From: Zunongwangia sp. HGR-M22
GTDB taxonomy: Bacteria > Bacteroidota > Bacteroidia > Flavobacteriales > Flavobacteriaceae
Direction of reading: 5' to 3'
Assembly: GCF_027594425.1 (NCBI RefSeq)
Contig: NZ_CP115159.1
Location: 3,123,001 to 3,187,000 of the forward strand
Length of the DNA stretch: 64,000 nucleotides
Notes under the pieces: generated by a model
Told to the model about the DNA's origin: nothing
The model's database searches: none
Seen by the model: only the letters and a program-made list of their open reading frames with translations
Program-made: the position numbers and the translations under genes
Part shown: positions 16,086 to 36,433 of the stretch, piece after piece
Layout: every line of letters starts with the position of its first letter
Numbering within the stretch: position 1 is the first letter of the stretch

Positions 16086-18383
16086 CTACTCTTTAATAGT
16101 AAATTCTTTTTTTAAATCAGCTTCAGAGCTTCCACCAACAAAAACTGAAAATTCTCCGGGTTCTACTTTATAATTTCCTTCAGCATCATAAAAACCAAGT
16201 TCTTTTTCGGTTAACGTAAACTGAATGGTTTTTGATTCCCCTTTTTCTAAAGTTACTAATTCAAATCCTTTTAATTCTTTTATGGGCCTAATTATACTAG
16301 CGTATTTATCGTGGATATAGAGTTGCACCACTTCTTTACCATCATAATTACCGGTATTGGTAACGGTGACGCTTACTTTTATTTCATCTGAAGATTTAAT
16401 GGATTCTTTATTCAATTTTAAATCTGCATATTCAAAAGTGGTGTAACTCAATCCAAATCCGAAAGGATATAATGGCGAATTTTCTTCATCGATATATTTT
16501 GACCAAAATACTTGCTCTTGTCCTGGTGCAGGATCTACCGGCCTTCCGGTATTTCTTTTGTTATAATAAATAGGAATTTGCCCGACGCTTCTCGGGAAAG
16601 TCATTGGAAGCTTTCCACTTGGGTTATAATCGCCATATAAAACCTGAGCAATCGCATTTCCGCTTTCAGTTCCCAATTGCCATGCTTCTACAATAGCAGG
16701 AATATGCGCTGCAGCCCAATCGATCACCAACGGTCGACCGTTATTTAAAACAAGTACGATGTTTTTATTCACTTCGTACACTTTTTCTAGCAATTCTTGT
16801 TGTACGCCTGATAAACCTAATTCGGTTCTACTTCTTCCCTCTCCGGTTTGGAAACCATGCTCACCAAGTACCATTACAACTACGTCAGCGTTTTTAGCCG
16901 TTTCTATAGCTTCATCAAAATCACTTTTATTAGACGTATTTACATGTAATTCTTTGGTAAATTGTGGATCGTTAGTAATTAAATCAGCTCCTTTTGCGTA
17001 GGTAATATTATTTCCCTTATACGCTCTCATCCCTTCTAAAAAACTAACTGCCGTATGATCGTCTGATCCTAAACGCCAGCTTCCTAGCGGACTATTATCA
17101 TCTTCTGCTAACGGTCCGATTACGGCTATATTCTGATTTTTCTTTTGAAGTGGTAAAAGCTTGTTTTCATTCTTCAATAATACAATCGATTTTTTTGCCA
17201 TATCTAATACCGCTTCACGATTTTCTTTACTACCTATAATAGTTCTTTCCCGTTCTTCATCGCAATATCGATATGGATCTTCAAACAATCCTAATTCAAA
17301 TTTCACACGTAGAATTCTTCTCACAGCATCGTCTAAAACTTCTTCATCGATAGTTCCATTAGCTACCAATTCTTCTAAAGCTTCGTTATACACATAGCCT
17401 TCCATATCCATATCGGTTCCGGCTGTCATGGCTCGTAAAGCGGCTTCTTTTTTATCTTTAGCATAACCCCAGGTAATCATCTCTTCAATAGAAGCCCAAT
17501 CGGATACCACAAATCCGTTGAAATCCCATTCATCCTTTAACACATCATGCAATAAATATTTATTTGCAGTAACCGGGAGGCCGTTCCATTCATTAAAACC
17601 ATTCATTAAAGTGCGTGTTCCTGCTTCTACAGCTGCTTTAAAAGGTGGTAATACCACGTTATGTAAAGTGACTGCGCTAAAATCGGCTTTATTATATTCT
17701 CTTCCCGCTTCTGCAAACCCATATCCTGCAAAATGTTTTGCACAGGCCGCGATAGTTAATGGATCGGCGAGATTTTCTCCCTGAAATCCAGTTACGCGAG
17801 CAGCAGCAATTTTGCTTCCTAAAAACGGATCTTCTCCTCCGCCTTCCATTACTCTACCCCAGCGCGGATCTCTAGAAATATCGACCATCGGAGCAAACGT
17901 CCAGTTGATTCCGGAAGCTGCTGCTTCTGAAGCGGCAACTTGAGCTGATTTTTTAATGGCTTCCAAATCCCAGCTGGCGGCTTCAGCCAACGGAATTGGA
18001 CTTAGGGTTTTATACCCGTGAATAACATCGAAACCAATAATTAACGGAATACCCAACCTACTTTCTTCAACTGCAATCTTTTGTACCGCTCTCACTTCTT
18101 TAACTCCGCGAACACTTAACATGGAACCTACCCTTCCATTTTTTAGGTCTTCATATTTTTTGGCTTCGTTAGTACCGTTAGGCGCCGGGCCTGTTACATC
18201 CCAAAATCCGTTATATTGCACGGTTTGACCAACTTTTTCTTCCAGCGTCATTAAGCTGAGTAGCGAATCGACTTTTGTTGTTATTTCTTCTTCGGAAAGT
18301 TTCATTGATGATGGAGTTTGTGCATGTGCAGTAAAACTTATAGCTGCGATAAAAATAGGAGTTGTTATCGATTTTAATTTCAT
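16086..18383 (-). CDS. bglX: GH3 family beta-glucosidase (BglX-like), last gene of mannan operon
   Basis: Exo-beta-glycosidase releasing terminal glucose (possibly mannose) from oligosaccharides in the periplasm. 765 residues, the usual BglX length. Signal peptide ends AHAQ. N-terminal GH3 barrel contains KHFAGYG and the nucleophile Asp295 in GFVVSDW; the middle C-terminal alpha/beta domain runs about 400-620; a fibronectin type III-like domain (about 670-755) ends the protein. It begins 3 bases after the GH5 mannanase and is followed by a strong terminator, so it closes the operon. In a glucomannan context it would remove glucosyl residues left by mannanases (inference). Confidence 0.92.
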   Translation of the reverse strand: MKLKSITTPIFIAAISFTAHAQTPSSMKLSEEEITTKVDSLLSLMTLEEKVGQTVQYNGFWDVTGPAPNGTNEAKKYEDLKNGRVGSMLSVRGVKEVRAVQKIAVEESRLGIPLIIGFDVIHGYKTLSPIPLAEAASWDLEAIKKSAQVAASEAAASGINWTFAPMVDISRDPRWGRVMEGGGEDPFLGSKIAAARVTGFQGENLADPLTIAACAKHFAGYGFAEAGREYNKADFSAVTLHNVVLPPFKAAVEAGTRTLMNGFNEWNGLPVTANKYLLHDVLKDEWDFNGFVVSDWASIEEMITWGYAKDKKEAALRAMTAGTDMDMEGYVYNEALEELVANGTIDEEVLDDAVRRILRVKFELGLFEDPYRYCDEERERTIIGSKENREAVLDMAKKSIVLLKNENKLLPLQKKNQNIAVIGPLAEDDNSPLGSWRLGSDDHTAVSFLEGMRAYKGNNITYAKGADLITNDPQFTKELHVNTSNKSDFDEAIETAKNADVVVMVLGEHGFQTGEGRSRTELGLSGVQQELLEKVYEVNKNIVLVLNNGRPLVIDWAAAHIPAIVEAWQLGTESGNAIAQVLYGDYNPSGKLPMTFPRSVGQIPIYYNKRNTGRPVDPAPGQEQVFWSKYIDEENSPLYPFGFGLSYTTFEYADLKLNKESIKSSDEIKVSVTVTNTGNYDGKEVVQLYIHDKYASIIRPIKELKGFELVTLEKGESKTIQFTLTEKELGFYDAEGNYKVEPGEFSVFVGGSSEADLKKEFTIKE

Positions 18384-18386
18384 GGC

Positions 18387-19670
18387 TTACTTTTTAGAAA
18401 AGATTGTGTTATACTCTTTTAGCATTTTTAAAGTAGAAGTATCTTCAGCAAAAACGGAATTTAAACCTTGAGGTTCTTGTGGAGGATCGGCTGTAAAATC
18501 ATCTCCTTTTTCCCATTTAGCTTGCCCAGAAATTGTTTTGGCAATTCCGGCAAATCCCCAAAAATTGAGTCCGCTTAACTCATTTTTATTTTTAAAACTT
18601 GCTTTTAATTCTTCTAATATCGATTTATAAAACCGATCACGATAGTTTACCGAAGAACCTCTCTCTAAACTTTCGCCATCACGAGGAAATCCAAATTCAG
18701 AAAGTACCAAAGGTTTTTGAAGTTGTTTTGCTACTTTTTTATGCTCTTCAATATAATCATGTGCATTTTTTATAGACGTTTGTAAGGTAGCTTCTTCATT
18801 ATCTTTATTGTACCAACCCCAATTTTTTGGCCACATGTGAGCTGTTAAATAATCGATTTTATCGGTAGCATGTAAGTTTTTATAGGTTTCTAAATCTTGC
18901 AGATAACTCGCTTTTCCTTCAGCGCCCGTAGAAATTAAAGTATTCGGATCTAATGAATCCATATAATTTACAGTTTCTGATAACCAGGATGCAAAAGGCT
19001 CGCGGTCTTCTTCAGAAAAAATTCTTGGTTCGTTAGCTACTTGCCAAGACATAATGGTATTATCGTCGGTATACACCAATCCGTTAACCGAATTGGTTCT
19101 CGTCATTATAAATTTAATGTGTTTTTTAAAAGCTTCTTGACAAGGTTTGCACGTGTGAAATTGCTGTGTATACGCAAAATATTCCGGCCAGGTATATTCT
19201 TCTAAAAATGGATTAGGAACATCTCCGTAACCATTCCAGCGTAAATATGTAGACATTCCACCAGACCAAATCCAGTTATTATTTAAATATAAAACCGCAT
19301 ACATATTACGCTTACGCATTTCGTTCAATAAAAAATCAAGCCCTTCTAACAAATCCTGATTATACTTTCCTTGCTCGTACTGTAAAGCCGGTTTTACCTG
19401 AGAATCTTCTATTCCTCCTTCACCACCAACTAAAATTCGCAAATTATCAACCCCTAAACTATCCAGCATATCCAGCTCTTTAATTAACCGATCCCGATCA
19501 CCAATATTAGGTGCCGCAATTAAAGGCCCGTACCAGTAATTAGCGCCTACAAAGTAGTATGGTTTATTGCCTTGATAAAATTGGCCGTTTTTAACGCTTA
19601 TCGGTTTTACGCTTTGGCACGAATAGCAAACAATACAAAGTATACATATTGAAAAGAGTCGTTTTATCAT
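18387..19670 (-). CDS. GH5 (subfamily 7-like) endo-beta-1,4-mannanase lipoprotein
   Basis: Endo-acting mannanase. The 427-residue protein is a lipoprotein (Cys18 after VCYS). The N-terminal VGANYWYG motif and the fold order match fungal/bacterial GH5_7 mannanases. Acid/base is Glu214 in VANEP, nucleophile Glu325 in LSEFG; both present. It starts 33 bases after the epimerase gene and ends 3 bases before GH3. With the GH26 enzyme at the head of the operon, two mannanases of different families occur in the same transcript, a common arrangement in beta-mannan loci. Subfamily assignment is by eye only. Confidence 0.88.
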   Translation of the reverse strand: MIKRLFSICILCIVCYSCQSVKPISVKNGQFYQGNKPYYFVGANYWYGPLIAAPNIGDRDRLIKELDMLDSLGVDNLRILVGGEGGIEDSQVKPALQYEQGKYNQDLLEGLDFLLNEMRKRNMYAVLYLNNNWIWSGGMSTYLRWNGYGDVPNPFLEEYTWPEYFAYTQQFHTCKPCQEAFKKHIKFIMTRTNSVNGLVYTDDNTIMSWQVANEPRIFSEEDREPFASWLSETVNYMDSLDPNTLISTGAEGKASYLQDLETYKNLHATDKIDYLTAHMWPKNWGWYNKDNEEATLQTSIKNAHDYIEEHKKVAKQLQKPLVLSEFGFPRDGESLERGSSVNYRDRFYKSILEELKASFKNKNELSGLNFWGFAGIAKTISGQAKWEKGDDFTADPPQEPQGLNSVFAEDTSTLKMLKEYNTIFSKK

Positions 19671-19703
19671 GATAATTTTAGTTAGGGTATTTTTTTACAG
19701 ATT

Positions 19704-20894
19704 TTAATAATTTTCAATTAGTTCGATTAGTGCTCGGCTATTGTGATACGGGCACTTCCACATTCCTACTCGGTTTTCATCTTCATAAGGCTTATGATTT
19801 CTATCGATTCTGAAATGCCATTCGCCAAGTTCTTCATCGATAATATATTTTTTGGTGAAATCCCAGATATCTTCTATAGCTTCTCTATATTTTTCTGAAG
19901 CTTGGATATTGTTCGCATACGCCAAACCTAGCATCGCTTCAGCTTGAGGCCACCAATGCCTATCGGTATCGACGTGGTTGGTTTCTAAATCTTTTTCATT
20001 AATTATACCCTCAGATTTTTTGTAAGCTTCAGCTAAAAATACATCTGCAATTTGAATTGCCGCTTTTTGTACTTTTTCAATCAAATTTTTATTGTTAACC
20101 TGATTTGCTGCAGCTAACAGTAACCAGGTTGCTTCAATATCGTGACCGTATGAAACCACGTGGTTTTGCAAATTCCATTGTGTATCAAAAAACAATTGAA
20201 AGTGACCATTTTCAGCATTAAAAAATTTTTCAAGATGAAGATTGATTAAATTCTGTAATGCTTTTTTCACCTTATCTGAATGAGTTACTTCAGCTAAAGT
20301 TGTATAGGCTTCTAGGATATGAAGATGCGTATTCATAGTTTTTGAAGCATTTAAATCTTTCTCACTTAATCGCATATCTTCAATTGGCGACCAATCTTGG
20401 TTAAAAGCTTCGATATATCCGCCAAATTCTTTATCTAGCGCGTGTTTTTCAATTAATTTAAACACCTCTAAAGCCCAATTTAAGGCTTCTTCATTTTTAG
20501 AAAACTTATAATATTCTGATAAAGCATAAATTAAAAATGCCTGCGCGTAAATTTGTTTTCTGGTATTTAAAGGATTCCCCTGATAATCTAATACCCAATA
20601 TACGCCACCAAATTCAGCATCTTTAAAATAATGCTTCAGATACTCAAAAGCTCTATCTGCTTCTTTTTCCGTAGAAAAATCAGGCTTAAAATTCGCTATT
20701 CTGGAAAAGGTCCATAACAAACGCGTATTTAAAATAACGCCTTTATCGGCATTAAAATCGGGTTTATTAAAATGATCTCTTCTACCTATAAAACCATCAT
20801 TTTCTATATCCAGGCTATTTTCTTTCCAATAATTAACAATATTGATTAGTTCCTGAAAAAGTTCTTTTTTAAAATTAGTCTGCAGAATTTCCAT
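19704..20894 (-). CDS. Cellobiose 2-epimerase-like (N-acylglucosamine 2-epimerase family)
   Basis: Cytoplasmic (alpha/alpha)6-barrel epimerase. In mannan pathways it converts beta-1,4-mannobiose to mannosyl-glucose. 396 residues, no signal peptide, normal length for cellobiose 2-epimerases. Conserved segments: YGHDIEATWLL (catalytic His region), HWWPQAEAM, and EWHF near the C-terminus. The gene overlaps the GH130 phosphorylase gene by 20 bases, which strongly supports translational coupling and the mannobiose epimerase/phosphorylase pathway described for Bacteroides fragilis. An acylglucosamine epimerase role is less likely because of this context. Confidence 0.88.
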   Translation of the reverse strand: MEILQTNFKKELFQELINIVNYWKENSLDIENDGFIGRRDHFNKPDFNADKGVILNTRLLWTFSRIANFKPDFSTEKEADRAFEYLKHYFKDAEFGGVYWVLDYQGNPLNTRKQIYAQAFLIYALSEYYKFSKNEEALNWALEVFKLIEKHALDKEFGGYIEAFNQDWSPIEDMRLSEKDLNASKTMNTHLHILEAYTTLAEVTHSDKVKKALQNLINLHLEKFFNAENGHFQLFFDTQWNLQNHVVSYGHDIEATWLLLAAANQVNNKNLIEKVQKAAIQIADVFLAEAYKKSEGIINEKDLETNHVDTDRHWWPQAEAMLGLAYANNIQASEKYREAIEDIWDFTKKYIIDEELGEWHFRIDRNHKPYEDENRVGMWKCPYHNSRALIELIENY

Positions 20895-22086
20895 AAGCTT
20901 TATTCCGGTTTACTAAATCAATAATTTCGTTTACTGAACTAGCTGATGTGAAATTATCTTTCGGGGTATTTTTTACATAATCTACTAATCGTTCTACGGA
21001 ACTTACCGCTACATGACAGCGTGTATCTGAAGAAGCATAGTAAATATATACTTTTCCGTCTTCATCTTTAATCCATCCATTTACGAATAACACATTGGGA
21101 ACATCACCAACTGTTTCTTCGTAATTAGGCGCCATAAAATAACCGGCCGGTTGATAAATCACTTTTGAAATATCATTTAAATCGGTCATAAACATATACA
21201 AGGTATATCGTAAACCTCCTGCGGTATTACGAACCCCATGCGCTAAATGTAACCATCCTTCTTCGGTTTTAATTGGCGCAGGACCTTGCCCGTTTTTCAT
21301 TTCATAAATAGTATGATATGCTTTATGATTGATTATTGTTTCATCCTCTAAAACAGGATTCGACATATCTGTAATATAGCCCAAACCAATTCCGCCGCCT
21401 TTTCCTACTTCTATAAATCCGTCTTGCGGACGCGTATACAATGCATATTTACCATTAACAAATTCAGGATGCATAACTACGTTACGTTGTTGACCTGAGT
21501 TAGATATTAAATCTGGCAAACGTTCCCAACTTAGCAAATCTTTTGTTCTAACAATTCCGGCATTAGCCACGGCAGCCGTAGTATCCTCTAAATGATCTTT
21601 ATCTTTGCGTTCTGTACAGAAAATACCATAGATCCAGCCATCTTCGTGCTTTGTTAATCGCATATCGTACACGTTGGTATCTGGTTCACCATATTGTGGT
21701 AAAGCAACCGGTTTTTCCCAAAACTTAAAATTATCGATTCCGTTAGGGCTTTCTGCGATACCAAAAAACGATTTACGATCGTTGCCTTCTACTCGTACGG
21801 CCAAAAGATACTTATCGTTCCATTTAATTGCTCCCGGATTAAACGTCGCATTAATCCCGATACGTTCTAATCCGTTAGGGTTGGTTTCCGGATTTAAATC
21901 GTACCGCCATTCTAAAGGCGTATGTGCATGGGTTACCACCGGATTTTGATAACGTTGGTATATGCCATTAAAGCTAGAAACTGGCTTATTATTTTTTTCA
22001 AGCAGTTCACGATGGGTAGTTTTTAATTGAGAAAAATTAGGAATGGTTTTCATCAAACTGGTATTTATATCTACTGACTTTTTCAT
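20875..22086 (-). CDS. GH130 4-O-beta-D-mannosyl-D-glucose phosphorylase
   Basis: Cytoplasmic phosphorylase that splits mannosyl-glucose into mannose-1-phosphate and glucose. 403 residues, no signal peptide, five-bladed propeller type. Family signs: NPVVTHAH, NPGAIKWNDKYLLAVRVEG, and EPDTNVYDMRLT, where Asp141 is the probable general acid. If translation began at Met12 (position 22053) the Asp would be residue 130, close to the numbering of the B. fragilis enzyme, so the annotated start at 22086 may be 11 codons too long. It lies 4 bases after the symporter and overlaps the epimerase gene. Confidence 0.9.
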   Translation of the reverse strand: MKKSVDINTSLMKTIPNFSQLKTTHRELLEKNNKPVSSFNGIYQRYQNPVVTHAHTPLEWRYDLNPETNPNGLERIGINATFNPGAIKWNDKYLLAVRVEGNDRKSFFGIAESPNGIDNFKFWEKPVALPQYGEPDTNVYDMRLTKHEDGWIYGIFCTERKDKDHLEDTTAAVANAGIVRTKDLLSWERLPDLISNSGQQRNVVMHPEFVNGKYALYTRPQDGFIEVGKGGGIGLGYITDMSNPVLEDETIINHKAYHTIYEMKNGQGPAPIKTEEGWLHLAHGVRNTAGGLRYTLYMFMTDLNDISKVIYQPAGYFMAPNYEETVGDVPNVLFVNGWIKDEDGKVYIYYASSDTRCHVAVSSVERLVDYVKNTPKDNFTSASSVNEIIDLVNRNKAYGNSAD

Positions 22087-22090
22087 TGAG

Positions 22091-23932
22091 TTACATATTT
22101 ACAGATTTGGAATTTTCTTTTTTTATTCTATCCCACCAATTAAACTTTAGAATAACTATAGCAATACATAAAACGATTGTACAATATAGTACTAGCGAGT
22201 ATTCACGAATTATTAAATAGATAGGGATAATTACTAATAAGGTTTGGGCTAATGTCCCAATCACGACATTAAACATATCACGTGAAAAACCTTTATTTTT
22301 CTTGAAATTTGAATTAACCGATTGTACTTTATTAGCAATTGGTTTCCAAAATCCCCAAGGATTTGTTTTCTCGTAAAAATTCATTAGTACTTCCTCGTTT
22401 GTAGGAGGAGCTGTGTAGGTTCCCACAATAGCTCCAAATAGAGAAATAACAAGAATAATCGGGAAATAATACAAATCGAGTGTATCGGTAAATATTGGAA
22501 ATATTAAAGCCGGAATAATACCAGACAACATTCCCCAGAAATAGCCCTCTCCGTTAAAACGCCACCAATGCCATTTTAATACATTAGAGATCACGTAGCT
22601 ACCGTAGAGTGCAGAAACAATCCATTGTAATATAGAGTTTACATCTTGAACGAAAAAGCCAAGTACAATACTGATAATTACCACCACGATACCGCTGAGA
22701 TAATTCATCTTTTTAATTTTTTTAGAAGAGGCATCAGGTTCTTTATATTTCAAATAAATATCATTAACCAAATAGGCTTGTGCAGCATTTAATGTTCCCG
22801 CAAAAGTCGACATAAAAGCAGCCAGTAAACCCGCTAACAACAAGCCTAAAAGACCTACCGGAACAAACTGCCCAATGGCTGCCGGTAAGATTTTTTCGAA
22901 ATCGAGTACCCCGGCAGTTCTCAAATCTAGCTGATCGTAAAAAAGAACAGCTAAAATAGAAAAACCACCAACCATTAAATATCGAGTTGGGATTAAAGCT
23001 CCTAAAGAGAACGCACTCATTTTAGCGGCTTCTAATGGAGATTTTGTAGAAAGGATTTTTTGCATATCGTAATTAGGTGCTGGCCCAGCAATACTCGATA
23101 AAATACCTTTGAAGAGCATCAACATAAAAAAGAGACCAAATAAGGAATAGCCATCTTCTGCAATCTTGGTGTTTACCTCATCAATGATGCCCGTCCAATC
23201 GAGATTGAGTTCCCAGCCGAAAAACGGATTCATCCAATCGTTAGGTACATTTAACGTATTTTCTCCAAAAGCATTCCATGCAATAATCGCAATAGCAATT
23301 GAAGAAATCGTCATGATTCCGTATTGTAAAACATCGGTCCAAACAATACCGGACATACCACCTAACACGGAATAAAAAACAGCAAATAATGTAAAAATGA
23401 TACCGTAAAAGTGAGGAATATAAGCTGGCGCGACCTCAAAAGGAACGTAAGGTGAAATTAATTCCCAGGGAATAAAAATTTCAACAAACTTCCCTAATCC
23501 TATAAAACCATAGGCTAAAAATCCTAAACAACTTAATATGGCAAATATCACGATAATGGTATGCGATCGTTTCCCTCCTTTTCCACTATCAAACCGAAAT
23601 AAAATCCATTCGGCTCCTGTTGTTACGTTAGATCGGCGTAACCACATCGATAAATAAACCATTAAAAAAACCTGGTTAAAAACAGGCCATAACCAAGGAA
23701 TCCAAATACTTTTAAATCCATAAACAAAGGTTAGGGTCACCAACCACATGGTACCGGAAATATCAAACATTCCCGAAGCGTTAGATAAGCCTAACATATA
23801 CCACGGAAGGCTTTTCCCTCCCATTAAATAATCGTCTTTACTTTTTTGGGCTTGCTTTCTAGCAGCAAGTCCAATTATTATTGTTCCTGCTAAATAGGCA
23901 AGAATAATAAGAATATCGGTTAATTGTAACAT
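22091..23932 (-). CDS. Sodium/solute symporter (SSS family), probable mannobiose importer
   Basis: Inner-membrane sodium:sugar symporter. 613 residues with about 13-14 hydrophobic helices; the N-terminus (YLAGTIIIGLAARKQ, then YLMGGKSLPWY) is typical of SSS proteins. The position between the GH26 mannanase (9-base gap) and the GH130 phosphorylase (4-base gap) indicates it brings mannanase products, probably mannobiose, across the inner membrane. Substrate is inferred from context only; C-terminal ~90 residues form two further helices after a basic loop. Confidence 0.9.
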   Translation of the reverse strand: MLQLTDILIILAYLAGTIIIGLAARKQAQKSKDDYLMGGKSLPWYMLGLSNASGMFDISGTMWLVTLTFVYGFKSIWIPWLWPVFNQVFLMVYLSMWLRRSNVTTGAEWILFRFDSGKGGKRSHTIIVIFAILSCLGFLAYGFIGLGKFVEIFIPWELISPYVPFEVAPAYIPHFYGIIFTLFAVFYSVLGGMSGIVWTDVLQYGIMTISSIAIAIIAWNAFGENTLNVPNDWMNPFFGWELNLDWTGIIDEVNTKIAEDGYSLFGLFFMLMLFKGILSSIAGPAPNYDMQKILSTKSPLEAAKMSAFSLGALIPTRYLMVGGFSILAVLFYDQLDLRTAGVLDFEKILPAAIGQFVPVGLLGLLLAGLLAAFMSTFAGTLNAAQAYLVNDIYLKYKEPDASSKKIKKMNYLSGIVVVIISIVLGFFVQDVNSILQWIVSALYGSYVISNVLKWHWWRFNGEGYFWGMLSGIIPALIFPIFTDTLDLYYFPIILVISLFGAIVGTYTAPPTNEEVLMNFYEKTNPWGFWKPIANKVQSVNSNFKKNKGFSRDMFNVVIGTLAQTLLVIIPIYLIIREYSLVLYCTIVLCIAIVILKFNWWDRIKKENSKSVNM

Positions 23933-23941
23933 AGGGCTAAA

Positions 23942-25060
23942 TTAGTTGTGTATAGTTTTGAGCTCGGGCAAGAATAATATATCTTGTTTTTGCTCAAACT
24001 TCTTAAAGTTAGATTCGGTTTTTTCGGAAGGATAGGTACTAAAATAATGGTCTTTTCGGGCATTTCTCCACACCAATACCCAAGCAATTCCGCTTTCTTT
24101 AATGGCAGGGTATAATACTTCTGTCCACCACTTGGCATTACTTGCCATACTAAAATTTCCGGTTTCGGTTAAGGCAAAAGGCTTATTTTTAGCAATGCTT
24201 TTCTTTTTTAATAGTTGAAGATTTTGAGTAACAGATCGAATAAATTCTTCATCTCCGCTATGGTTATAGATATCAACACCCAGCACATCTACGTATTGGT
24301 CTCCCGGATAAAACCTGTCAAAATCTTCAGCAGAAGACATGGTGTTAGGAGAATAAGCGTATAAAAGATTGTGAACCCCATTTTCAAAAAATAACTGCTG
24401 TGTTTTTATCCAAAGTTTTTTGTAATCTTCAGGAGTGCACCGTCCTTTTCCCCACCAAAACCAGGCACCATTCATTTCGTGAAAAGGTCTAAAAATAACA
24501 GGAATTGCGTTTCCTTCTTCATCTTTTAAAGAATTAAAGAATAGGCTAAGCTGCTTTACCCAACCTTTATATTTTTGACTGACTGGCCCTTCTTTTAAAA
24601 TTTCTGAAACAGCTGAAATAGTATCCCAAGAGCTTCCTCCACTTACCGGATTATTTAAATGCCAGCTAAATGTCACTAAACCACCTTCTTTATACATTTT
24701 TTGAGTATGCTGCTTCATCATAGCAAATGAAACGGTATCTAAATTAAAGGTGTTTCCTAATTCTAAGTGGCCTAAATCAAAACCCAATAAAGCGGGCTGC
24801 TTAGCTACTACTTTTTTAATATCGCTAGTTAATACTTGCGGCTCTTCTTGTAAATACCAGTTTAAGCCATAAGCGGTGGCATCTTGCTGCCCAAAGGCCA
24901 TTCCTTTTTTTGAAATATTTTTCAAACGTTCTCGTAACTTAATAACATTACTATTTGCGTAGCGATCTGAAAGAACACTATTCGCATTTCTAGACATTGT
25001 AGCGCAAGACATTAATAAAGTAAGATTAAATAGTATAAGTATTCTGATAAAATATTTCAT
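23942..25060 (-). CDS. GH26 endo-beta-1,4-mannanase lipoprotein
   Basis: Endo- or mannobiose-producing mannanase. 372 residues; lipoprotein with Cys19 in LMSC. GH26 hallmarks are clear: FRPFHEMNGAWFWW with acid/base Glu195, and ALTETG with nucleophile Glu299; GFDLGHLE and SWHLNNPV are also family-typical. It is first in the mannan operon, facing the divergent AraC-type regulator. Because export of mannobiose-producing GH26 enzymes plus GH130/epimerase is a known pathway, the products are likely taken up by the next gene's symporter. Confidence 0.92.
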   Translation of the reverse strand: MKYFIRILILFNLTLLMSCATMSRNANSVLSDRYANSNVIKLRERLKNISKKGMAFGQQDATAYGLNWYLQEEPQVLTSDIKKVVAKQPALLGFDLGHLELGNTFNLDTVSFAMMKQHTQKMYKEGGLVTFSWHLNNPVSGGSSWDTISAVSEILKEGPVSQKYKGWVKQLSLFFNSLKDEEGNAIPVIFRPFHEMNGAWFWWGKGRCTPEDYKKLWIKTQQLFFENGVHNLLYAYSPNTMSSAEDFDRFYPGDQYVDVLGVDIYNHSGDEEFIRSVTQNLQLLKKKSIAKNKPFALTETGNFSMASNAKWWTEVLYPAIKESGIAWVLVWRNARKDHYFSTYPSEKTESNFKKFEQKQDILFLPELKTIHN

Positions 25061-25251
25061 TTGAATTTTTTATTTTCTATGCTAAATGTATATTAGACAC
25101 AGTTTTAAATATATAATGTTTGAAGCATTATTTTAATAATTCCTTTCGAATTAGCATCATAAATTATCAATTCTCAAAATTAACAGCGGAAGCGATCATC
25201 TATTAATAGAATTTTATCATTTAATAATTATTTTTTTTCTTTTTGACTCAT
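25061..25251. promoter_or_regulatory. Divergent promoter region of mannan operon and araC-type regulator
   Basis: A 191-base AT-rich spacer between the two divergent start codons. On the minus strand TACATTTA (25083-25090) is one mismatch from the Bacteroidota -7 box TAnnTTTG and would place transcription start about 18 bases before the GH26 start codon. The AraC-type protein probably binds here (inference from divergence). Confidence 0.4.
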
Positions 25252-26127
25252 ATGATACAAACTAATGTACACCGCGAAATCACACCACTTGCTCCTGAAG
25301 ATAGCTTTTTAGTTTTTGACAGAATTAAAGATGAATTTGATTTCCCTATCCATTTTCATCCAGAATATGAATTAAATTTTTTAAAAAACGGGAAGGGTGT
25401 TAGACGTGTGGTTGGTGATTCGATGAAAGAAATTGGCGATATTGAACTAGTACTTGTTGGACCTAATCTTCAACACGGCTGGGAACTTCATAACTGCGAA
25501 AGTTCTAAAATCCACGAGATAACTATTCAGTTTCACAATGATTTATTTGATACCAAACTTTTGGACAGACGTATTATGAAACCAATAAAAGATATGTTTG
25601 AACGATCTGCACACGGTATTTTATTTTCAGAAAAAATATCTGACGAAATCGCACCAAGAATCATGAATTTATCTAAAATCGATAGTATAGATTATTTCTT
25701 AGAACTTATATCCATACTTCATGATTTAGCGCGATCAAGAAATCAAAAATTACTTTCTACGTACACTTCAGATTTCAAAAATTTTGAGAACAGTGATAAA
25801 ATAAAAATCATTTATGAATATGTTCAGCTTAATTATCACAAAAAAATAAGCTTAAATGAAGTAGCCGATCTGGTAAATATGAGTCAGGTCTCATTCAATA
25901 GATTCATTAAAAAAAGAACCGGAAAAACATTGGTGGAATATGTTAATGATACACGCATTGGTTACGCTGCAAGATGGCTAATTGAAAAAGATTTAAGCAT
26001 TGCTGAAATTGCATATAAATGCGGTTTCAATAATATTGCAAACTTCAACCGGGTTTTTAAGAATAATAAAAAATGTACTCCAAGTAAATATAGAGAAGAA
26101 TTTAGCGGAATAAAAAGGGTGCTTTAA
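25252..26127 (+). CDS. AraC-family transcriptional regulator with N-terminal cupin
   Basis: DNA-binding regulator, probably sugar-responsive, controlling the divergent mannan operon. I start at ATG 25252; a TTG three codons upstream (25243) keeps the frame open but is a weaker choice. 291 residues: N-terminal cupin-like sensing domain (IHFHPEYELNFL), linker, and two C-terminal helix-turn-helix motifs (about 195-285; DLVNMSQVSFNRFIK and IAYKCGFNNIANFNRVFK). No membrane segment, so it senses a cytoplasmic effector, in contrast to the HTCS of PUL-1. It converges with the GH5 gene of PUL-2. Confidence 0.9.
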   Translation: MIQTNVHREITPLAPEDSFLVFDRIKDEFDFPIHFHPEYELNFLKNGKGVRRVVGDSMKEIGDIELVLVGPNLQHGWELHNCESSKIHEITIQFHNDLFDTKLLDRRIMKPIKDMFERSAHGILFSEKISDEIAPRIMNLSKIDSIDYFLELISILHDLARSRNQKLLSTYTSDFKNFENSDKIKIIYEYVQLNYHKKISLNEVADLVNMSQVSFNRFIKKRTGKTLVEYVNDTRIGYAARWLIEKDLSIAEIAYKCGFNNIANFNRVFKNNKKCTPSKYREEFSGIKRVL

Positions 26128-26203
26128 TTGATAATTTTAAGTGAAATAATGACAAAATACAATCAACCCTAATAAGTAATACGTTATCATTTAAACTTTA
26201 ATT

Positions 26204-27199
26204 TTAATAACTAAGCATTTTTTCCTTGAAATATTTACCCTGACGGCTTGGTGTAAAATTTTTATCCTTAAACATTCTGGGTGCCCAATCTTTATCGAAT
26301 ACCCAAATTAAGTAGGAGATGTTATTGTTATCTGAATAATTAGTTATTGCTTCTCCATAACCTTCGTCTCCTATTACAGGCTCATGTGCACCAGGGGAAG
26401 ATTTATCACAAAAACCAATTTCAGTTAAAACAACTGGATATTTTTCCTTAGCAAATCCCCAATCTTTTGACCATTTTCGCTCCCAGGGCTTCTTCTTTTT
26501 TTGTGGATAAGGGTGCGCTACATACGCAATATTAGTTGCATTAATAGGATTCTCTTTAATTGGCTTCAAATCATACGCCCAGTTAAAGCCGGCAACCAAA
26601 GGAATTCCTTCTCCTCCATTTGCGCGTATTACCGTTATAAGGTTTTCCATCAGTTTTTTCCATTCTCCCCAGGAAATTGAACCAAATTTCTTATTATATG
26701 TAGTAGGTTCATTAAAAAGCTCGTAAAATGCAACAGTTGAATTTCTTCCGTAATGCTGAGCTATAAGTTTCCAAAAATCCCGTGTTTCTTGCATTGTGGT
26801 AAAATACATCTGGTCCAGATAAAGTTCTGTTTTAAGATTACCGATACTATGCCAATCCAAGATTACATACAAACCGTTTTTATTAGCCCATTCAATTCCC
26901 TGATCTAGAATTTTTAAATATTCTTTCTCTCCTCTTTCTCGCCATGCTTTAGGATGAATTGGAAATCGCACAATTGTTGCTCCCCAATTCTTTATTTCTC
27001 TAAAGTAATCCTCGTTCCATAAATCGTCTTTCACCAATTTGTCTGGATCGCTCGTATTTACGCCTCTAAATACTAGAACCTCGCCTTTTGCATTTACAAA
27101 TTCATTTTGAGCTACTTTCAAACGATCCATAGGCTTTTGTGCCCTTAAATTTAAACAGACCAAAATCAAAATAGCGAAAAGGCTACATTTAAAATTCAT
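26204..27199 (-). CDS. GH5 family endo-glucanase/mannanase, secreted
   Basis: Endo-acting beta-glycanase of a different GH5 subfamily from the one at 18387-19670. 331 residues with signal peptide ending near NLRAQ. RGVNTSD, the acid/base Glu164 in LFNEP, the AHPYP histidine segment and nucleophile Glu260 in LTEIGF are all present. The cellulase-like layout suggests activity on beta-1,4-glucan or glucomannan. It is the last gene of PUL-2, 8 bases after the GH27 gene. No lipobox, so it may be periplasmic or secreted. Confidence 0.87.
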   Translation of the reverse strand: MNFKCSLFAILILVCLNLRAQKPMDRLKVAQNEFVNAKGEVLVFRGVNTSDPDKLVKDDLWNEDYFREIKNWGATIVRFPIHPKAWRERGEKEYLKILDQGIEWANKNGLYVILDWHSIGNLKTELYLDQMYFTTMQETRDFWKLIAQHYGRNSTVAFYELFNEPTTYNKKFGSISWGEWKKLMENLITVIRANGGEGIPLVAGFNWAYDLKPIKENPINATNIAYVAHPYPQKKKKPWERKWSKDWGFAKEKYPVVLTEIGFCDKSSPGAHEPVIGDEGYGEAITNYSDNNNISYLIWVFDKDWAPRMFKDKNFTPSRQGKYFKEKMLSY

Positions 27200-27207
27200 A
27201 GCAAAAT

Positions 27208-28431
27208 TTACGACTTTGGAGTTAAAGTAACCATCAAAACATCGTGTACACCAATTGATGCTTTTAAATTCTTACTGGTATTCCCAATATTTTTATGCTG
27301 AAATAAATCTCTGATTGCATATTCTTTAAATGAAGGCTTGAAGTACTGCTGACTTAAATCGTCTGCCAATTGATGTTTCTTCCAGTCGAAATCTATGCTA
27401 ACCGCTTCATCGTTACGGTTAATAAAAACGAGCGCCCAGGCATCATCTTCTAATGGTTTAGCCCAAATTTCTATATTATTTTCATTATTAAATCGAAAAG
27501 CCGGCACGGCTAAAGGATCTTTATTTACGGCTATAACTTCTTTATTAGTAAGTGTTCTTAAAGTTTCTTTAGATACATCTCTAAGATCGTTCCCCATAAT
27601 TAATGGTGAATTAAGCATACTCCACATTGCAAAATGACTACGATCCTCGGCATCTGTCATTCCATTACCAACTTCCATCATATCGTAATCGTTCCAATGT
27701 CCTGGTCCTGCTACTTCTCTTGTTTTTTCCTTTTCTCTTAACTCTATTATTTTCCAGATTCCGAAAGATGCCCAGGATCCATGTCCTACTGCACAATCCC
27801 AACAATCAATAATATCGCCGGTTATTCGCCACATATGGCCTACATCTTCTCCCCATTCCCAAGGATCGTTGTCTCCCCATTCGCAAATACTAAACAAAAC
27901 AGGTCTACCTGCTTCATAAAGGGCGTCTCTCATTGTAATATAAGATTCCTTTGCATTTAATTTCCCGGTATCGCACCAATCATATTTTAAAAAATCTACT
28001 CCCCAAGAGGCATATAATTTAGCATCTTGATATTGATGCCCTCTGCTACCGGGGTATCCTGCACAGGTTTTTCCTCCTGCGCAGTTGTATAATCCAAATT
28101 TTAAACCTTTAGAATGCACATAGTTTGCTACGGCCCTCATACCATTGGGAAATTTTTCTGGATCTGCTACGAGATTTCCCTCTTCATCTCTTTCTCTAGC
28201 CATCCAGCCATCATCAAGAACTATATATTCATAACCAGCATCCTTAAGCCCTAATTCTATAAATTTATCTGCAATATCTTTTAATAACTGCTCATTGATA
28301 TTAGTTTCGAAAGTATTCCAGCTGTTCCAACCCATAGGGGGTGTTTCAGCCAGGTTATCAAATTTTTGAGCGTGAATATTAAGCCCTGAAAAATATATAA
28401 ATACAATGGCTAATATTAGTTTATTATTCAT
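27208..28431 (-). CDS. GH27 alpha-galactosidase
   Basis: Removes alpha-1,6-galactose side chains from galactomannan. 407 residues; signal peptide ends NIHAQ. GH27 signatures: PPMGWNSWNTF, LDDGW, nucleophile Asp151 in KYDWC, acid/base Asp206 in WRITGD. C-terminal beta-sandwich about 310-405. It lies between the TIG lipoprotein and the second GH5 in PUL-2. Its presence is the main reason to assign PUL-2 to galacto(gluco)mannan. Confidence 0.93.
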   Translation of the reverse strand: MNNKLILAIVFIYFSGLNIHAQKFDNLAETPPMGWNSWNTFETNINEQLLKDIADKFIELGLKDAGYEYIVLDDGWMARERDEEGNLVADPEKFPNGMRAVANYVHSKGLKFGLYNCAGGKTCAGYPGSRGHQYQDAKLYASWGVDFLKYDWCDTGKLNAKESYITMRDALYEAGRPVLFSICEWGDNDPWEWGEDVGHMWRITGDIIDCWDCAVGHGSWASFGIWKIIELREKEKTREVAGPGHWNDYDMMEVGNGMTDAEDRSHFAMWSMLNSPLIMGNDLRDVSKETLRTLTNKEVIAVNKDPLAVPAFRFNNENNIEIWAKPLEDDAWALVFINRNDEAVSIDFDWKKHQLADDLSQQYFKPSFKEYAIRDLFQHKNIGNTSKNLKASIGVHDVLMVTLTPKS

Positions 28432-28487
28432 CTTTATTTTCAGATTCTAAAATTGATTGATTGTTTTTAAAAGTCGCTGATAAACCT

Positions 28488-29519
28488 TTACAGTAAACCA
28501 AAATCATCGATATAGTAAACATTACCGGTACCATTAAATTCTTGCAGTACCACGTTATCTAAGGACTCTAGCCCTGCCAGACTTAAATTTTCTATTGGTA
28601 TTGAAACTGTTTGCCATTCTCCCCCAGTAATAGAAATTAAATAACCATTTTCATAATCATTATTCGTTACAACCATAATATTACCGTCGTTTTCAGGATA
28701 AATTTCAAACTGCAAGGTATTATAGTCTTCAGCTAAAACAGGAGCTCCTCCGTTACCAATTTGAAAACCAGACCATGCCGCTATTTCAACTTTTAAAGAA
28801 ACCTCACCGGTAAGTACATTTTCTGTATTAGCAAAATCATTAGTTACACCCCAGCCGCCTATCCACCAATCTGGATTTAACTGTTCGTCATAAAATTTAA
28901 ATAAAAGACCTCCGAATAATTTTTCTGAGGATGTAGACCCACCGGCTGTTGTTACGATAACTGGAGACGGCGCGGAAATCGCTGGAGCTTCTACAACAAT
29001 TTCTGTATCAGAATTAGATAATATCGTTGCTTCGTTTTCACCAAAAAAAACACTCTCTAAATTTTCGAAAACACTTCCTAAAATGGTCACCTGCGTTCCT
29101 GCATCTCCTGTTTTAGGGCTAAAAGACGTTATTCCCGGTGCCGGTTGTAAAATATCAAATTCGTATTCCACTGCTGCTGAGTTTGTTACCAGTATCAACA
29201 TTTCTGAAGATTGATCGTACGGTGTATTTGCATCGATCGTCACAAAAATCACCTCATCAGTTACAAGAGTTGGGTTAAAATAAGTATCATAATCATTGAA
29301 ATATATTTTTTCTAAAGAACTAAAGCCTCTTCCTCTAACTATATACATATTTTGTCGCATACCGCCCATTACTACAGAATCATTCGCTGCAAGGCTTATA
29401 CTTTCTATTTCTGGCGTTGTAACTAAATCATCATTATCTTCACAAGAAGTTAGTATTACGCTTAGTAACAAACCAACCAGCAAAATACCATATTTGATAT
29501 TATTCTTTATATTTTTCAT
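28488..29519 (-). CDS. IPT/TIG-domain surface glycan-binding lipoprotein (PUL-2)
   Basis: A 343-residue lipoprotein (Cys26 in LTSC). Two Ig-like IPT/TIG repeats are visible (about 35-120, and about 125-205 beginning PGITSFSPKTGDAGTQVTI), followed by a C-terminal jelly-roll-like domain (about 215-343) with Trp-rich strands, compatible with carbohydrate binding. The layout SusC, SusD, TIG lipoprotein matches surface glycan-binding proteins of Bacteroidota mannan and glucan loci. No catalytic motif. It begins 25 bases after the SusD pseudogene. Confidence 0.8.
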   Translation of the reverse strand: MKNIKNNIKYGILLVGLLLSVILTSCEDNDDLVTTPEIESISLAANDSVVMGGMRQNMYIVRGRGFSSLEKIYFNDYDTYFNPTLVTDEVIFVTIDANTPYDQSSEMLILVTNSAAVEYEFDILQPAPGITSFSPKTGDAGTQVTILGSVFENLESVFFGENEATILSNSDTEIVVEAPAISAPSPVIVTTAGGSTSSEKLFGGLLFKFYDEQLNPDWWIGGWGVTNDFANTENVLTGEVSLKVEIAAWSGFQIGNGGAPVLAEDYNTLQFEIYPENDGNIMVVTNNDYENGYLISITGGEWQTVSIPIENLSLAGLESLDNVVLQEFNGTGNVYYIDDFGLL

Positions 29520-29544
29520 TTTGATTCGTTTTTATATTATTTGA

Positions 29545-31074
29545 TTAGTCTTCAAAATCATATGGCACCGCTTCCTCTAATAGCAATGGGTTTGATGCTG
29601 ATTCGTTTGCAGGGATAGGATATATTAGATCTTCTGCAGTAGCCGTATAAAATTGATCAAAATTTTTGTCTCCTCTGTTTTGAGAATTCAAAAGTTCAAT
29701 CGCATCACTAGTAGATAGCAAACGCTGAATATCAAACCAATATTCTCCCTCAAAAGCAAACTCTCTTCTACGTTCTTCTAATAAGGTTTCATTTGTTATA
29801 CTTGGCAACTCAACCAATCCAGCTCTTTGCCGTATCATGTTAAAATACATAAGTGCAGTAGCATCTGAGGTTGCACCTGTCCCAGCCATAGCAGCTTCTG
29901 CATAAATCATAAGCAAGTCTGCATAGCGCATCACGTAAGTATTATTAGATGTCATACCCCAGTTATCATAAGGATCACCCCCTCCTACAACGTATTTTTT
30001 AATAGCTGAACCCGATGTCGCAGCATCAATATCTTCTGGGACAGTAAATTGTTCTCCAGAGGAAGTATATAGGTTTTCATAAGTATATCCAGGAACCATT
30101 ATGTTTTCTACTTCTCGTAGATCTCCGTTAGGATAGATATCCTGAATGTCCTGAGATGGACCAAAAACATTCCAATCCCCTATATTGCCAAGTCCATAAC
30201 CACCGGCAGAATTAGCAATATTACTTTGGTTACCAGATCCATAATCGGTAGAAATCGTCCACTGTATAGCGAAAATCGATTCTTCGTTATTGTTATTTTC
30301 AGTTAAAAATAAATCGGCATAATTATCTAAAAGCTGAAATTCTCAAGAGTTAATTACCTCAGCTGCTAAATTTTTAGCTTCAGCAAATTTCTCCTGAGAT
30401 AAATATACTTTTGCAAGAATCGACTTAGCTGAACCTACTGAAACTCTTTTATTACTGGCATAATCTGCACCTCTAATTTTCTCTGGCAGTAAATCTATTG
30501 CCATAGCCAAGTCCATTTCTATAAATCTGTAAACATCCTCTTTAGGATTTTTAGGAATTTGTGGACTATAGATATAATCGTACGTATTTTCTATAATTGG
30601 AACTTCTTCCCAAAATCGAACAAGATAGAAATAAGCTACTGCTCTTAGAAAATAGGCTTCCCCTTTTACGATGTCTATAGTCTCTTGGTCTACCTCTCCA
30701 CCAGCACGATCATCTAGATTATTTATTAGTTCATTAGATTGTGTAATAACAGAATATAAACTACCCCAAGTATCTTCTAACATCGAATTAGAAGAAGTAA
30801 CCGTGAACTGAGTAAAAGATAAGTGCGTGTAATTAAACATGTTCCCGGAAATTGTCTCTGTCATAGGCCAGAAAGAAGTACTAAACATGTTCCACCAAGG
30901 CTTATAATATAATGGAGCAATTCTAGAATTTACCTGATCATTAGTATAATAAAAATCGTTATCTGAATAATTATCTTCTGGTGGTCGCTCTAAAAAGTCG
31001 CTACAAGAAAAAATACTAGCTAATAAAACCAAGCCTAAGGCAAGTCTACGGAAGTTATATAAAAATTGTATCAT
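29545..31074 (-). pseudogene. susD: SusD/RagB lipoprotein of PUL-2 interrupted by one in-frame TGA
   Basis: The region encodes a full-length SusD-like lipoprotein (509 codons; signal with Cys24 in IFSC; RagB C-terminus EERRREFAFEGEYWFDIQRL). Codon 244 (30343-30345) is TGA. Upstream and downstream parts are in the same frame, and the 81 codons after the stop down to Met 30099 translate as normal SusD sequence (EFQLLDNYADLF and so on) without further stops. The context VINS-stop-EFQLL matches the common SusD pattern VINSG, so a single GGA to TGA change explains it. It may be a genuine nonsense mutation, a sequencing error, or readthrough. SusC2 ends 11 bases upstream and the TIG lipoprotein starts 25 bases downstream. 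Confidence 0.9.
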
Positions 31075-31085
31075 GTTTTATTAAA

Positions 31086-34187: not shown

Positions 34188-34471
34188 TTGATCTAATTTA
34201 AATTGATATATAATTAAATAACTACAACCTTTTCGTAATGAATTTTAAGTATTCACTAAAAAAAGACATCTAGAATACTAAAATCAAATTTATAGTTAAT
34301 CTCACTGGCTTATTAATATTATTTTGTCAATTTGTTATCAAAATCATAAGATAATTAATAATTCCCAAATGAGTTCTTTTATCCTTTTTGCTAAAACATT
34401 TTTCCAACCTGAATATCATTTCTTTACAACTTTTGTATTGTTATTCGCATAGTGGACTTGCAATAAAAAAC
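34188..34471 (-). promoter_or_regulatory. PUL-2 upstream spacer
   Basis: AT-rich spacer of 284 bases between the left end of the IS element and susC2, with no ORF. It should contain the PUL-2 promoter, or what is left of it after the insertion. No clear TAnnTTTG box was recognised. The IS transposase genes read in the same direction, so transcription from the IS could enter PUL-2. Confidence 0.35.
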
Positions 34472-34494
34472 AGGACTTTAAGTTGAGTGACTAT
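34472..34494 (+). repeat. Left terminal inverted repeat of IS3 element (imperfect)
   Basis: Pairs with 35749-35771 in inverted orientation with 17 of 23 identical bases; starts AGGAC where the other end has TGGAC. Confidence 0.6.
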
Positions 34495-35405
34495 GCTGCT
34501 AGTTTTTGATTATACATATCTATTTCAAATTCTTTAATGGTTCTGTTGCCTAAATAAGAATGTCTTCTTCTGGTATTGTACCAGGTTTCTATCCACTGAA
34601 AGATAGATAACTCTGCCTGTGATCTAAGCTTGTACTTATGCCAATATACCCACTCTACTTTTAGAGATTTAAAAAAGGATTCCGCCACGGCATTGTCCCA
34701 GCAGTTTCCTTTCCGACTCATAGATTGTTTTACCAGGCCATTATAGCTTTTAAGTAGATTAGTAAATCTTTGGCTGGCATACTGAATACCTTGGTCTGAA
34801 TGGAATATCAAAGGTTGTGTGAGTGTGGTATTTTTAATAGCCATCTGCCAAGCTTTTATAATAGTATCTTCGGTATTTAGGGTATCACTTAAAGACCATC
34901 CTATAACTTTTCTGTTAAATAGATCAATGATCACTGTTAGGTAACTCCAACCTTGTTTGGTTTGAACATAAGTAATATCGCTTACCCATACTTGATTAGC
35001 TCTGGCTACATTAAAGCATTGGTTCAACAAGTTTGGAGCTGTGGGGTATTTATGATTACTATTAGTGGTCGTCTTAAACTTACGTTTCCTCTTTGCGTAT
35101 AAATAGTTTGCCTTCATTATGCGAGCTATCCGTGGCTTTGATACCTTAAAACCTAAAGCTTCCAGTTCCGCTTTTATTCTAGGAGCTCCATAGCTTTGGT
35201 AACTATCTTCAAAAATATCTTTGATTAATGAAGAGAGCTTCTGATTATCTTTCCAGAGGTTGCTGGGACCAGATTTCAACCAGTGGTAATAACCACTTTT
35301 ACTAACGGCTAACATAGTGCACATCTTACGGGCAGGAAATTTCATACGATGCTGTTTTATGAACCTGTATTTTTCTTGTCGCTCGCGGAAATGCGAAGCA
35401 TTCAC
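34491..35405 (-). CDS. IS3-family transposase OrfB (DDE integrase domain)
   Basis: Catalytic part of the transposase. 304 residues from GTG at 35405. HTH_21-like segment (about 55-100, SYGAPRIKAEL), then the rve integrase core with Asp143 (VSDITY), Asp204 (FHSDQG) and Glu242 (AESFF). The Asp204-Glu242 interval is 37 residues, two longer than in the usual DD(35)E pattern, by insertion in the SYNGLVKQ loop. The frame is -1 relative to orfA, as usual for IS3. It ends inside the left inverted repeat. All catalytic residues are present, so it may be active. Confidence 0.92.
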   Translation of the reverse strand: MNASHFRERQEKYRFIKQHRMKFPARKMCTMLAVSKSGYYHWLKSGPSNLWKDNQKLSSLIKDIFEDSYQSYGAPRIKAELEALGFKVSKPRIARIMKANYLYAKRKRKFKTTTNSNHKYPTAPNLLNQCFNVARANQVWVSDITYVQTKQGWSYLTVIIDLFNRKVIGWSLSDTLNTEDTIIKAWQMAIKNTTLTQPLIFHSDQGIQYASQRFTNLLKSYNGLVKQSMSRKGNCWDNAVAESFFKSLKVEWVYWHKYKLRSQAELSIFQWIETWYNTRRRHSYLGNRTIKEFEIDMYNQKLAA

Positions 35406-35437
35406 GAATACCTTAATCTAAAATAATAAATAGTGAG

Positions 35438-35722
35438 CTAAAAGATGCCAATCGCCTTTTTTAAGATATCACGTTCTAATTCAGTCTCTTTAAGCTGTTT
35501 TCTTAAACGAGCTATCTCTTTTTGTTCATCAGTCATTTTAGGATTGCCACGGCCGGGAAAACTATTCTTGCCATAATTCTTTTGCTCTTTACGCCAACGG
35601 TAAAGAACAGCAGGTAATATATCTAAGTCTTCACAAACCTGTGCTACATTGCCTTTGGCATAACTTAATTCTACTGCTTTTTGCTTAAACTCTAAGGTGT
35701 AATGTTTGGCTTTACGTCTCAT
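35438..35722 (-). CDS. IS3-family transposase OrfA (HTH DNA-binding subunit)
   Basis: Helix-turn-helix protein that binds the IS ends. I start at ATG 35722 (94 residues, MRRKAKHYTLEFK); a TTG at 35746 would add 8 residues. HTH_Tnp_1 motif about 8-50, leucine zipper-like helix at the end (ARLRKQLKETELERDILKKA). An A AAA AAG heptamer lies just before the end (35456-35462), the type used for -1 frameshifting. However, the -1 frame meets TAG at 35418-35420 before orfB starts, so a simple fusion is not possible from this site. Confidence 0.88.
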   Translation of the reverse strand: MRRKAKHYTLEFKQKAVELSYAKGNVAQVCEDLDILPAVLYRWRKEQKNYGKNSFPGRGNPKMTDEQKEIARLRKQLKETELERDILKKAIGIF

Positions 35723-35748
35723 AATTGCTAAGTTAACAACTTGCAATA

Positions 35749-35771
35749 ATATTCATTCAACTCTATGTCCA
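35749..35771 (-). repeat. Right terminal inverted repeat of IS3 element (imperfect)
   Basis: Reads TGGACATAGAGTTGA... inward on the minus strand; partner of 34472-34494. Confidence 0.6.
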
Positions 35772-35797
35772 GTCTAATGTAGTAATTCCATAGTAGG

Positions 35798-36344: not shown

Positions 36345-36348
36345 GTTG

Positions 36349-36433
36349 CGGAGAAAGAGGGATTCGAACCCCCGGAGGTGTGACCCTCAACAGTTTTCAA
36401 GACTGCCGCATTCGACCACTCTGCCATTTCTCC
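36349..36433 (-). tRNA. tRNA-Ser (anticodon TGA)
   Basis: 85-base class II tRNA. Acceptor stem GGAGAAA/TTTCTCC, discriminator G, D-arm GCAGAGTGGTCGAATGC, anticodon loop CTTGAAA giving TGA, a long variable arm, and T-arm GGGGGTTCGAATCCC. CCA is not encoded: after the discriminator the strand reads CAA. Confidence 0.97.

What the first reader, a model, noticed from the sequence alone, without database searches (positions are those of the whole stretch)
29545..31074. SusD of PUL-2 carries a single in-frame TGA in place of a conserved glycine codon
Codon 244 (30343-30345) is TGA. Both sides are in the same frame, the 81 codons from the stop to Met 30099 translate as coherent SusD sequence, and the local pattern VINS-TGA-EFQLL corresponds to VINSG in typical SusD proteins, so one GGA to TGA change accounts for it. 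The rest of the locus (SusC, TIG lipoprotein, GH27, GH5) looks intact. Options: a recent nonsense mutation that cripples galactomannan capture, a read or assembly error, or stop readthrough. A truncated 243-residue lipoprotein would lack the C-terminal RagB half.
Basis: partly seen in the sequence, partly recalled or inferred. Interest (0 to 1): 0.72.

Follow-up and report, generated by a model that had tools for sequence, protein, structure and literature searches.

The report
Recent nonsense mutation in a susD gene
One gene for a sugar-capturing surface protein in a flavobacterium has a stop codon halfway through; it looks like an ordinary, very recent loss-of-function mutation (or, less likely, a base-call error) in an otherwise intact mannan-use gene cluster.

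Summary
On the minus strand of window 29545-31074, a 510-codon susD frame has one TGA, codon 244 (30343-30345). The halves match PF14322 and PF07980. A same-genus genome (G002) has an uninterrupted 93%-identical orthologue in collinear DNA. In the aligned segments of 37 relatives there is no stop; 28 of 37 have glycine at the site.

The part after the stop shows no decay: dN/dS against G002 is 0.039 after and 0.050 before it. Amino-acid changes assigned to this lineage after the stop are 4, against 7 for G002. If real, the lesion is recent, at most about 3-13% of the branch under the assumptions. Recoding is disfavoured: no tRNA-Sec over cut-off, no UCA-anticodon tRNA found, RF2 present, TGA ends other genes.

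Best reading: a young nonsense mutation that removes the SusD lid of a beta-mannan SusCD importer. A base-call error cannot be excluded without reads. Loss-of-function susD mutations are already published (nonsense: PMC5458099; one-base insertion: PMC10197871). Ordinary; low interest.

The parts
29545..31074 (-). susD reading frame, 510 codons including the terminal stop, interrupted at codon 244
30343..30345 (-). in-frame TGA, codon 244; aligned relatives have a sense codon here (or a gap in one), mostly glycine
30343..31074 (-). N-terminal half, 243 aa, PF14322, with an apparent lipoprotein signal (lipobox read by eye)
29545..30342 (-). C-terminal half, 265 aa, PF07980 SusD_RagB; no ATG/GTG/TTG in frame for 81 codons
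31086..34187 (-). SusC-like TonB-dependent transporter, 1033 aa, intact, dN/dS 0.030 against G002
28488..29519 (-). TIG-domain protein (probable surface glycan-binding lipoprotein, inference), intact
27208..28431 (-). GH27 alpha-galactosidase type (Melibiase_2), intact
26204..27199 (-). GH5 family (PF00150), intact
25243..26127 (+). AraC-type regulator, intact
23942..25060 (-). GH26 mannanase family, intact
16086..23932 (-). sodium:solute symporter, GH130, GlcNAc_2-epim epimerase, a 427-aa protein without Pfam match, GH3: rest of the mannan cluster
34452..35791 (-). IS3-type element (rve transposase plus a second short frame) upstream of susC; not present at this place in G002

Best explanation
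A single-base nonsense mutation arose very recently (in nature or in culture) in the susD gene of an otherwise intact beta-mannan / galactomannan utilization locus. Translation stops at codon 244, giving at most a 243-residue lipidated stub without the C-terminal half of the SusD fold. The C-terminal half has no signal peptide and no nearby start, so it should not reach the cell surface. SusC would then lack its lid, and uptake of longer manno-oligosaccharides would be impaired. Shown: the stop, the intact orthologues, the intact neighbours, the absence of decay after the stop. Inferred: that the base is real, that no functional SusD is made, and the uptake defect.
For: Stop and flanking SusD domains. 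Uninterrupted 93% orthologue in collinear DNA of a same-genus genome. No stop in the aligned segments of 37 of 37 relatives. Substitution without indel. dN/dS of the whole gene 0.044 (41 of 104 orthologue pairs lower), before the stop 0.050, after 0.039. Polarised changes after the stop 4 (own lineage) against 7 (G002), 10 unassigned; neutral time at most about 3-13% of the branch, with about 15 further nonsense changes expected over a wholly neutral branch and none seen (the branch length, 0.30-0.50 synonymous changes per site, is assumed). Interrupted genes occur in this genome: 4 of 115 compared ORFs in 184 kb, SusD included. Published: a levan SusD deletion strain grew only after about 8 h lag, like strains with a non-functional transporter (PMC7782687, passages); deletion of SusD abolished growth in the starch system and in a xylo-oligosaccharide system (PMC9599597, passages).
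Against: No reads and no second isolate of the same species were available, so the base itself is untested. The absence of decay after the stop is equally what a base-call error would give. The rest of the cluster is under ordinary constraint (dN/dS 0.012-0.094 for eight genes), which gives no sign that the pathway is being abandoned. The half before the stop, not the half after it, has the more changes on this lineage (8 against 3).
Confidence: 0.74

Rival explanations
1. Base-call or assembly error: the organism's gene is intact and one base in the record is wrong.
For: No decay after the stop and an otherwise intact operon are exactly what an error predicts. Only one lesion. Some other interruptions near the window include one-base gaps at short runs, so the record may not be error-free.
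Against: The lesion is a substitution, not an indel, and not in a run of three or more equal bases. The genome is one contig, estimated 100% complete with 0.01 contamination. A 991-aa gene nearby has two frameshifts and a stop, which looks like genuine decay, so real pseudogenes exist here.
Confidence: 0.21
2. UGA is read through or recoded, so full-length SusD is made.
For: The frame downstream is preserved with low dN/dS. The column accepts Gly, Asn, His, Glu and Lys, so an inserted residue might be tolerated.
Against: No tRNA-Sec over the gathering score (19 weaker hits, the best at the tRNA-Ser of the window; 150 of 183 candidates scored). No tRNA with anticodon UCA among 44 tRNA matches (150 of 319 candidates scored). 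The one tRNA-Trp found has anticodon CCA and, read by eye, an ordinary D-stem. RF2 present. TGA ends 9 of 105 orthologous genes here, 6 of them also TGA in G002. None of the 37 aligned relatives has a stop.
Confidence: 0.03
3. The two halves are made as separate proteins that work together (split SusD).
For: The stop falls between the two Pfam domains.
Against: The next in-frame start is 81 codons on and would cut into PF07980, which begins at residue 21 of the second half. The C-terminal half would lack a signal peptide and lipobox (reading). None of the aligned relatives is split by a stop.
Confidence: 0.02

Closest known systems
susD loss-of-function mutations in the Elizabethkingia anophelis 2015-2016 outbreak strain (PMC5458099; passages read)
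   Same: A nonsense mutation in a SusD-family gene, with several independent changes in the same gene, as a recent event.
   Different: There parallel changes pointed to selection; here one genome and one lesion, so selection cannot be tested.
One-base insertion in a RagB/SusD gene in one evolved Flavobacterium johnsoniae line (PMC10197871; abstract and passages read)
   Same: Single-step inactivation of a susD-family gene in a flavobacterium.
   Different: A laboratory-evolved insertion, not a nonsense substitution; the authors found no effect on susceptibility to the competitor's antibiotic.
Marine beta-mannan PUL of Muricauda sp. MAR_2010_75 and relatives (PMC9860051; passages read, parts of the abstract among them)
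   Same: SusCD with GH26, GH27, GH5, GH130, epimerase and an AraC-type regulator.
   Different: The SusD here carries a stop; the state of SusD in the published clusters was not checked here.
SusD-like protein BACOVA_02651 (PDB 5e75), best sequence match among solved structures
   Same: Same family, aligned over residues 29-452.
   Different: Intact protein, distant in sequence.

Membership tests
SusD/RagB family | PF14322 and PF07980 domains in order in one protein | tested here: met
   Each half matches one domain almost end to end; they are in one frame but separated by the stop.
SusD/RagB family | directly downstream of a SusC-like gene | tested here: met
   SusC-like 31086-34187, same strand.
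Recent nonsense pseudogene | uninterrupted orthologue in a close relative | tested here: met
   G002, 93% identical, no stop; 37 of 37 aligned relatives without a stop in the aligned segment.
Recent nonsense pseudogene | no relaxed constraint yet downstream of the lesion | tested here: met
   dN/dS 0.039 after the stop; 4 against 7 polarised changes. Not distinctive: an error predicts the same.
Recent nonsense pseudogene | the base is real in the organism | not testable with these tools
   No reads and no second isolate of the species.
Selenoprotein or UGA recoding | tRNA-Sec | tested here: not met
   No match over the gathering score (150 of 183 candidates scored).
Selenoprotein or UGA recoding | other UGA-decoding tRNA | tested here: not met
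   No UCA anticodon in 44 tRNA matches; 150 of 319 first-look candidates were scored.
Selenoprotein or UGA recoding | in-frame UGA conserved in relatives | tested here: not met
   0 of 37.

The most novel reading that the evidence does not exclude
Loss of this SusD is an adaptive change under present selection (as suggested for Elizabethkingia anophelis), for instance because the cell lives on small mannan products released by neighbours, or because the loss avoids a phage or toxin that uses the SusCD complex.
Probability: 0.06. Interest if true: 0.4.

Novelty: new member of a known kind. Interest (0 to 1): 0.13.

Why it matters
Little beyond the strain. The stop warns that an automatic annotation may call this SusD a pseudogene or two fragments, and that the strain's growth on galactomannan may not follow from its gene list. 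If real and naturally present, it is a ready-made case of a SusC without its SusD in an otherwise intact locus.

Tried and rejected
Readthrough and selenocysteine were tested by searching the genome for tRNA-Sec, tRNAs and RF2 and held unlikely. A split gene with internal restart was held unlikely. A frameshift origin was rejected. Decay of the whole cluster was rejected for the genes from 20875 to 34187. Disruption of the susC promoter by the upstream IS element was considered: DNA stays alignable with G002 to window 34434, 247 bp beyond the susC start, so the promoter region is probably retained; the promoter scan found no excess over shuffles (4 found, mean 6.3), and sigma-70 patterns of this type may not apply to Bacteroidetes (recalled). 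The repeat search around the IS gave only short pairs. Replacement by a close paralogue was considered: no other match at E <= 1e-60 in the own genome. The plasmid search gave 91 records, all below 60% identity, and added nothing. Paper searches gave the precedents cited; none of the listed titles or passages seen concerns this gene, but most subscription journals are not in that library. PMC11501099 (passages) reports nonsense mutations in an anti-sigma factor of a PUL, not in susD. PMC7662799 and PMC5561996 and PMC11633381 were seen in the listing only. dN/dS used a simple Nei-Gojobori count with synonymous sites partly saturated (dS 0.48-2.14 for the cluster genes listed), so the values are rough.

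Full report
Observation. Window 29545-31074 on the minus strand is a single SusD reading frame with one TGA at codon 244, positions 30343-30345. The frame is otherwise open. The 243 residues before the stop match PF14322 over its whole length, and the 265 after it match PF07980 almost whole. The first start codon after the stop is the ATG at 30099, 81 codons on.

Comparison with relatives. The window lies in a one-contig genome of 4,040,619 bases, estimated 100% complete. Of 6 genomes of the genus searched, 4 (the own one included) have a match at E <= 1e-60: G002 at 93% identity, G001 at 46%, G003 at 45%, all three without a stop. In a sample of 397 genomes of the family (3 candidates scored in each genome listed; G002 is not among the matches listed), 24 match at E <= 1e-80, the own one included, and only the own gene has a stop. 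One scan of genome contigs added 13 loci. In best-segment alignments to 37 loci, the residue opposite codon 244 is Gly in 28, Asn in 4, His in 2, Glu in 1, Lys in 1 and a gap in 1, and no aligned segment holds a stop; a few of these rows are duplicates or near-duplicates (L025/L046, L026/L047, L035/L036). So the glycine is common, not invariant. Of 248 PF14322 matches in the six genus genomes, 150 were listed (counted by hand); the own gene, with an open frame of 244, is the only one of these 150 under 440 aa.

Age of the lesion. DNA of the window from 20001 to 34434 is collinear with G002 at 84% identity. Among 105 orthologue pairs in the 184 kb around the window, the median dN/dS was 0.058. 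SusD scores 0.044 (41 of 104 pairs lower), 0.050 before and 0.039 after the stop. With the 74%-identical loci L046 (Pustulibacterium marinum) and L047 (Neptunitalea chrysea) as outgroups, the half after the stop has 4 changes assigned to this lineage, 7 to G002 and 10 unassigned; the half before has 8, 3 and 5. If the half after the stop had been neutral for the whole branch one would expect many more changes and about 15 further nonsense changes; the data allow neutral evolution for at most about 3-13% of the branch, depending on an assumed branch length of 0.30-0.50 and on the unassigned sites. The lesion is therefore very young, or it is not in the organism at all.

Background rate of broken genes. 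Of 135 G002 ORFs in the compared stretch, 115 have a counterpart of 70% or more identity covering at least 70% of the ORF in this genome; 109 are intact, 4 have a stop and 2 are split. Two of the four stops lie within the first ten residues and reflect the choice of start, which leaves four interrupted genes: SusD (stop only), a 281-aa hydrolase-like gene (2-base gap), a 991-aa gene with two one-base gaps and a stop, and a 189-aa gene cut at the IS element. In the other direction, 116 of 134 ORFs have a counterpart; 113 are intact, and after setting aside one start difference 2 are interrupted in G002. Interrupted genes thus make up a few per cent in this genome, some of which may be errors. 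Of the four, SusD is the only lone substitution. Of 33 PF07980 matches in the own genome, two others are also remnants: C1:91688-92356, a C-terminal part only, and C1:535510-535746, a fragment with an open frame of about 92 aa between SusCD pairs.

Recoding. No tRNA-Sec reaches the gathering score (19 weaker hits). Of 44 tRNA matches (150 of 319 candidates scored), none has anticodon UCA, and the one tRNA-Trp has CCA and, by eye, a normal D-stem. RF2 is present. TGA ends 9 of 105 orthologous genes. Readthrough at a useful level has no support.

Context and consequence. SusC, TIG protein, GH27, GH5, an AraC regulator, GH26, a symporter, GH130, an epimerase and GH3 resemble the published make-up of marine beta-mannan PULs (PMC9860051, passages). 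The eight neighbour genes compared between 20875 and 34187 are intact, with dN/dS 0.012-0.094. In the levan system, a strain without SusD grew only after about 8 h, like strains with a dead transporter, and the authors attribute late growth to small products entering passively (PMC7782687, passages). SusD deletions abolished growth in the starch system and in a xylo-oligosaccharide system expressed in E. coli (PMC9599597, passages). By analogy, this strain should use mannan polymer poorly, if the base is real. Possible polar effects on the downstream genes are inference only.

Known precedents. Parallel changes, a nonsense mutation among them, arose in a susD gene of the Elizabethkingia anophelis outbreak strain (PMC5458099, passages). 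A one-base insertion in a ragB/susD gene arose in one evolved Flavobacterium johnsoniae line, where it did not change susceptibility to the competitor's antibiotic (PMC10197871, abstract and passages). The finding is a new instance of a known kind.

Verdict. Real sequence feature, most likely a recent nonsense mutation (0.74), with an error in the record as the main rival (0.21). Interest is low.

Noticed in passing
window 34452-35791: IS3-type element with four other full-length or nearly full-length copies (99, 96, 95, 89% identity), a partial one of 835 bases and smaller pieces in the genome. At this place G002 instead has a 1053-aa Eco57I-type restriction-modification methylase gene; the next gene (189 aa in G002, GIY-YIG match below the curated cut-off) lacks its start and is frame-shifted in the window.
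   Followed up: partly
G000:C1:91688-92356 (L118) and G000:C1:535510-535746 (L119): Two further SusD remnants in the same genome: a C-terminal part only, about 1.6 kb from a gene that looks like a site-specific recombinase by eye, and a short fragment between SusCD pairs.
   Followed up: partly
G000:C1 about 3201837-3204804 (in L062): A 991-aa gene of G002 (looks AsmA-like by eye) is broken here by two one-base gaps and a stop.
   Followed up: partly
G002:C2 about 2211068-2211951 (in L014): A gene that looks by eye like a 3-hydroxyacyl-CoA dehydrogenase is split in G002 by one missing base at a short C/G run, possibly a sequencing error in that genome.
   Followed up: no
window 36348-36433: tRNA-Ser with anticodon TGA (reads UCA codons); despite the letters it has nothing to do with UGA stop suppression.
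   Followed up: yes
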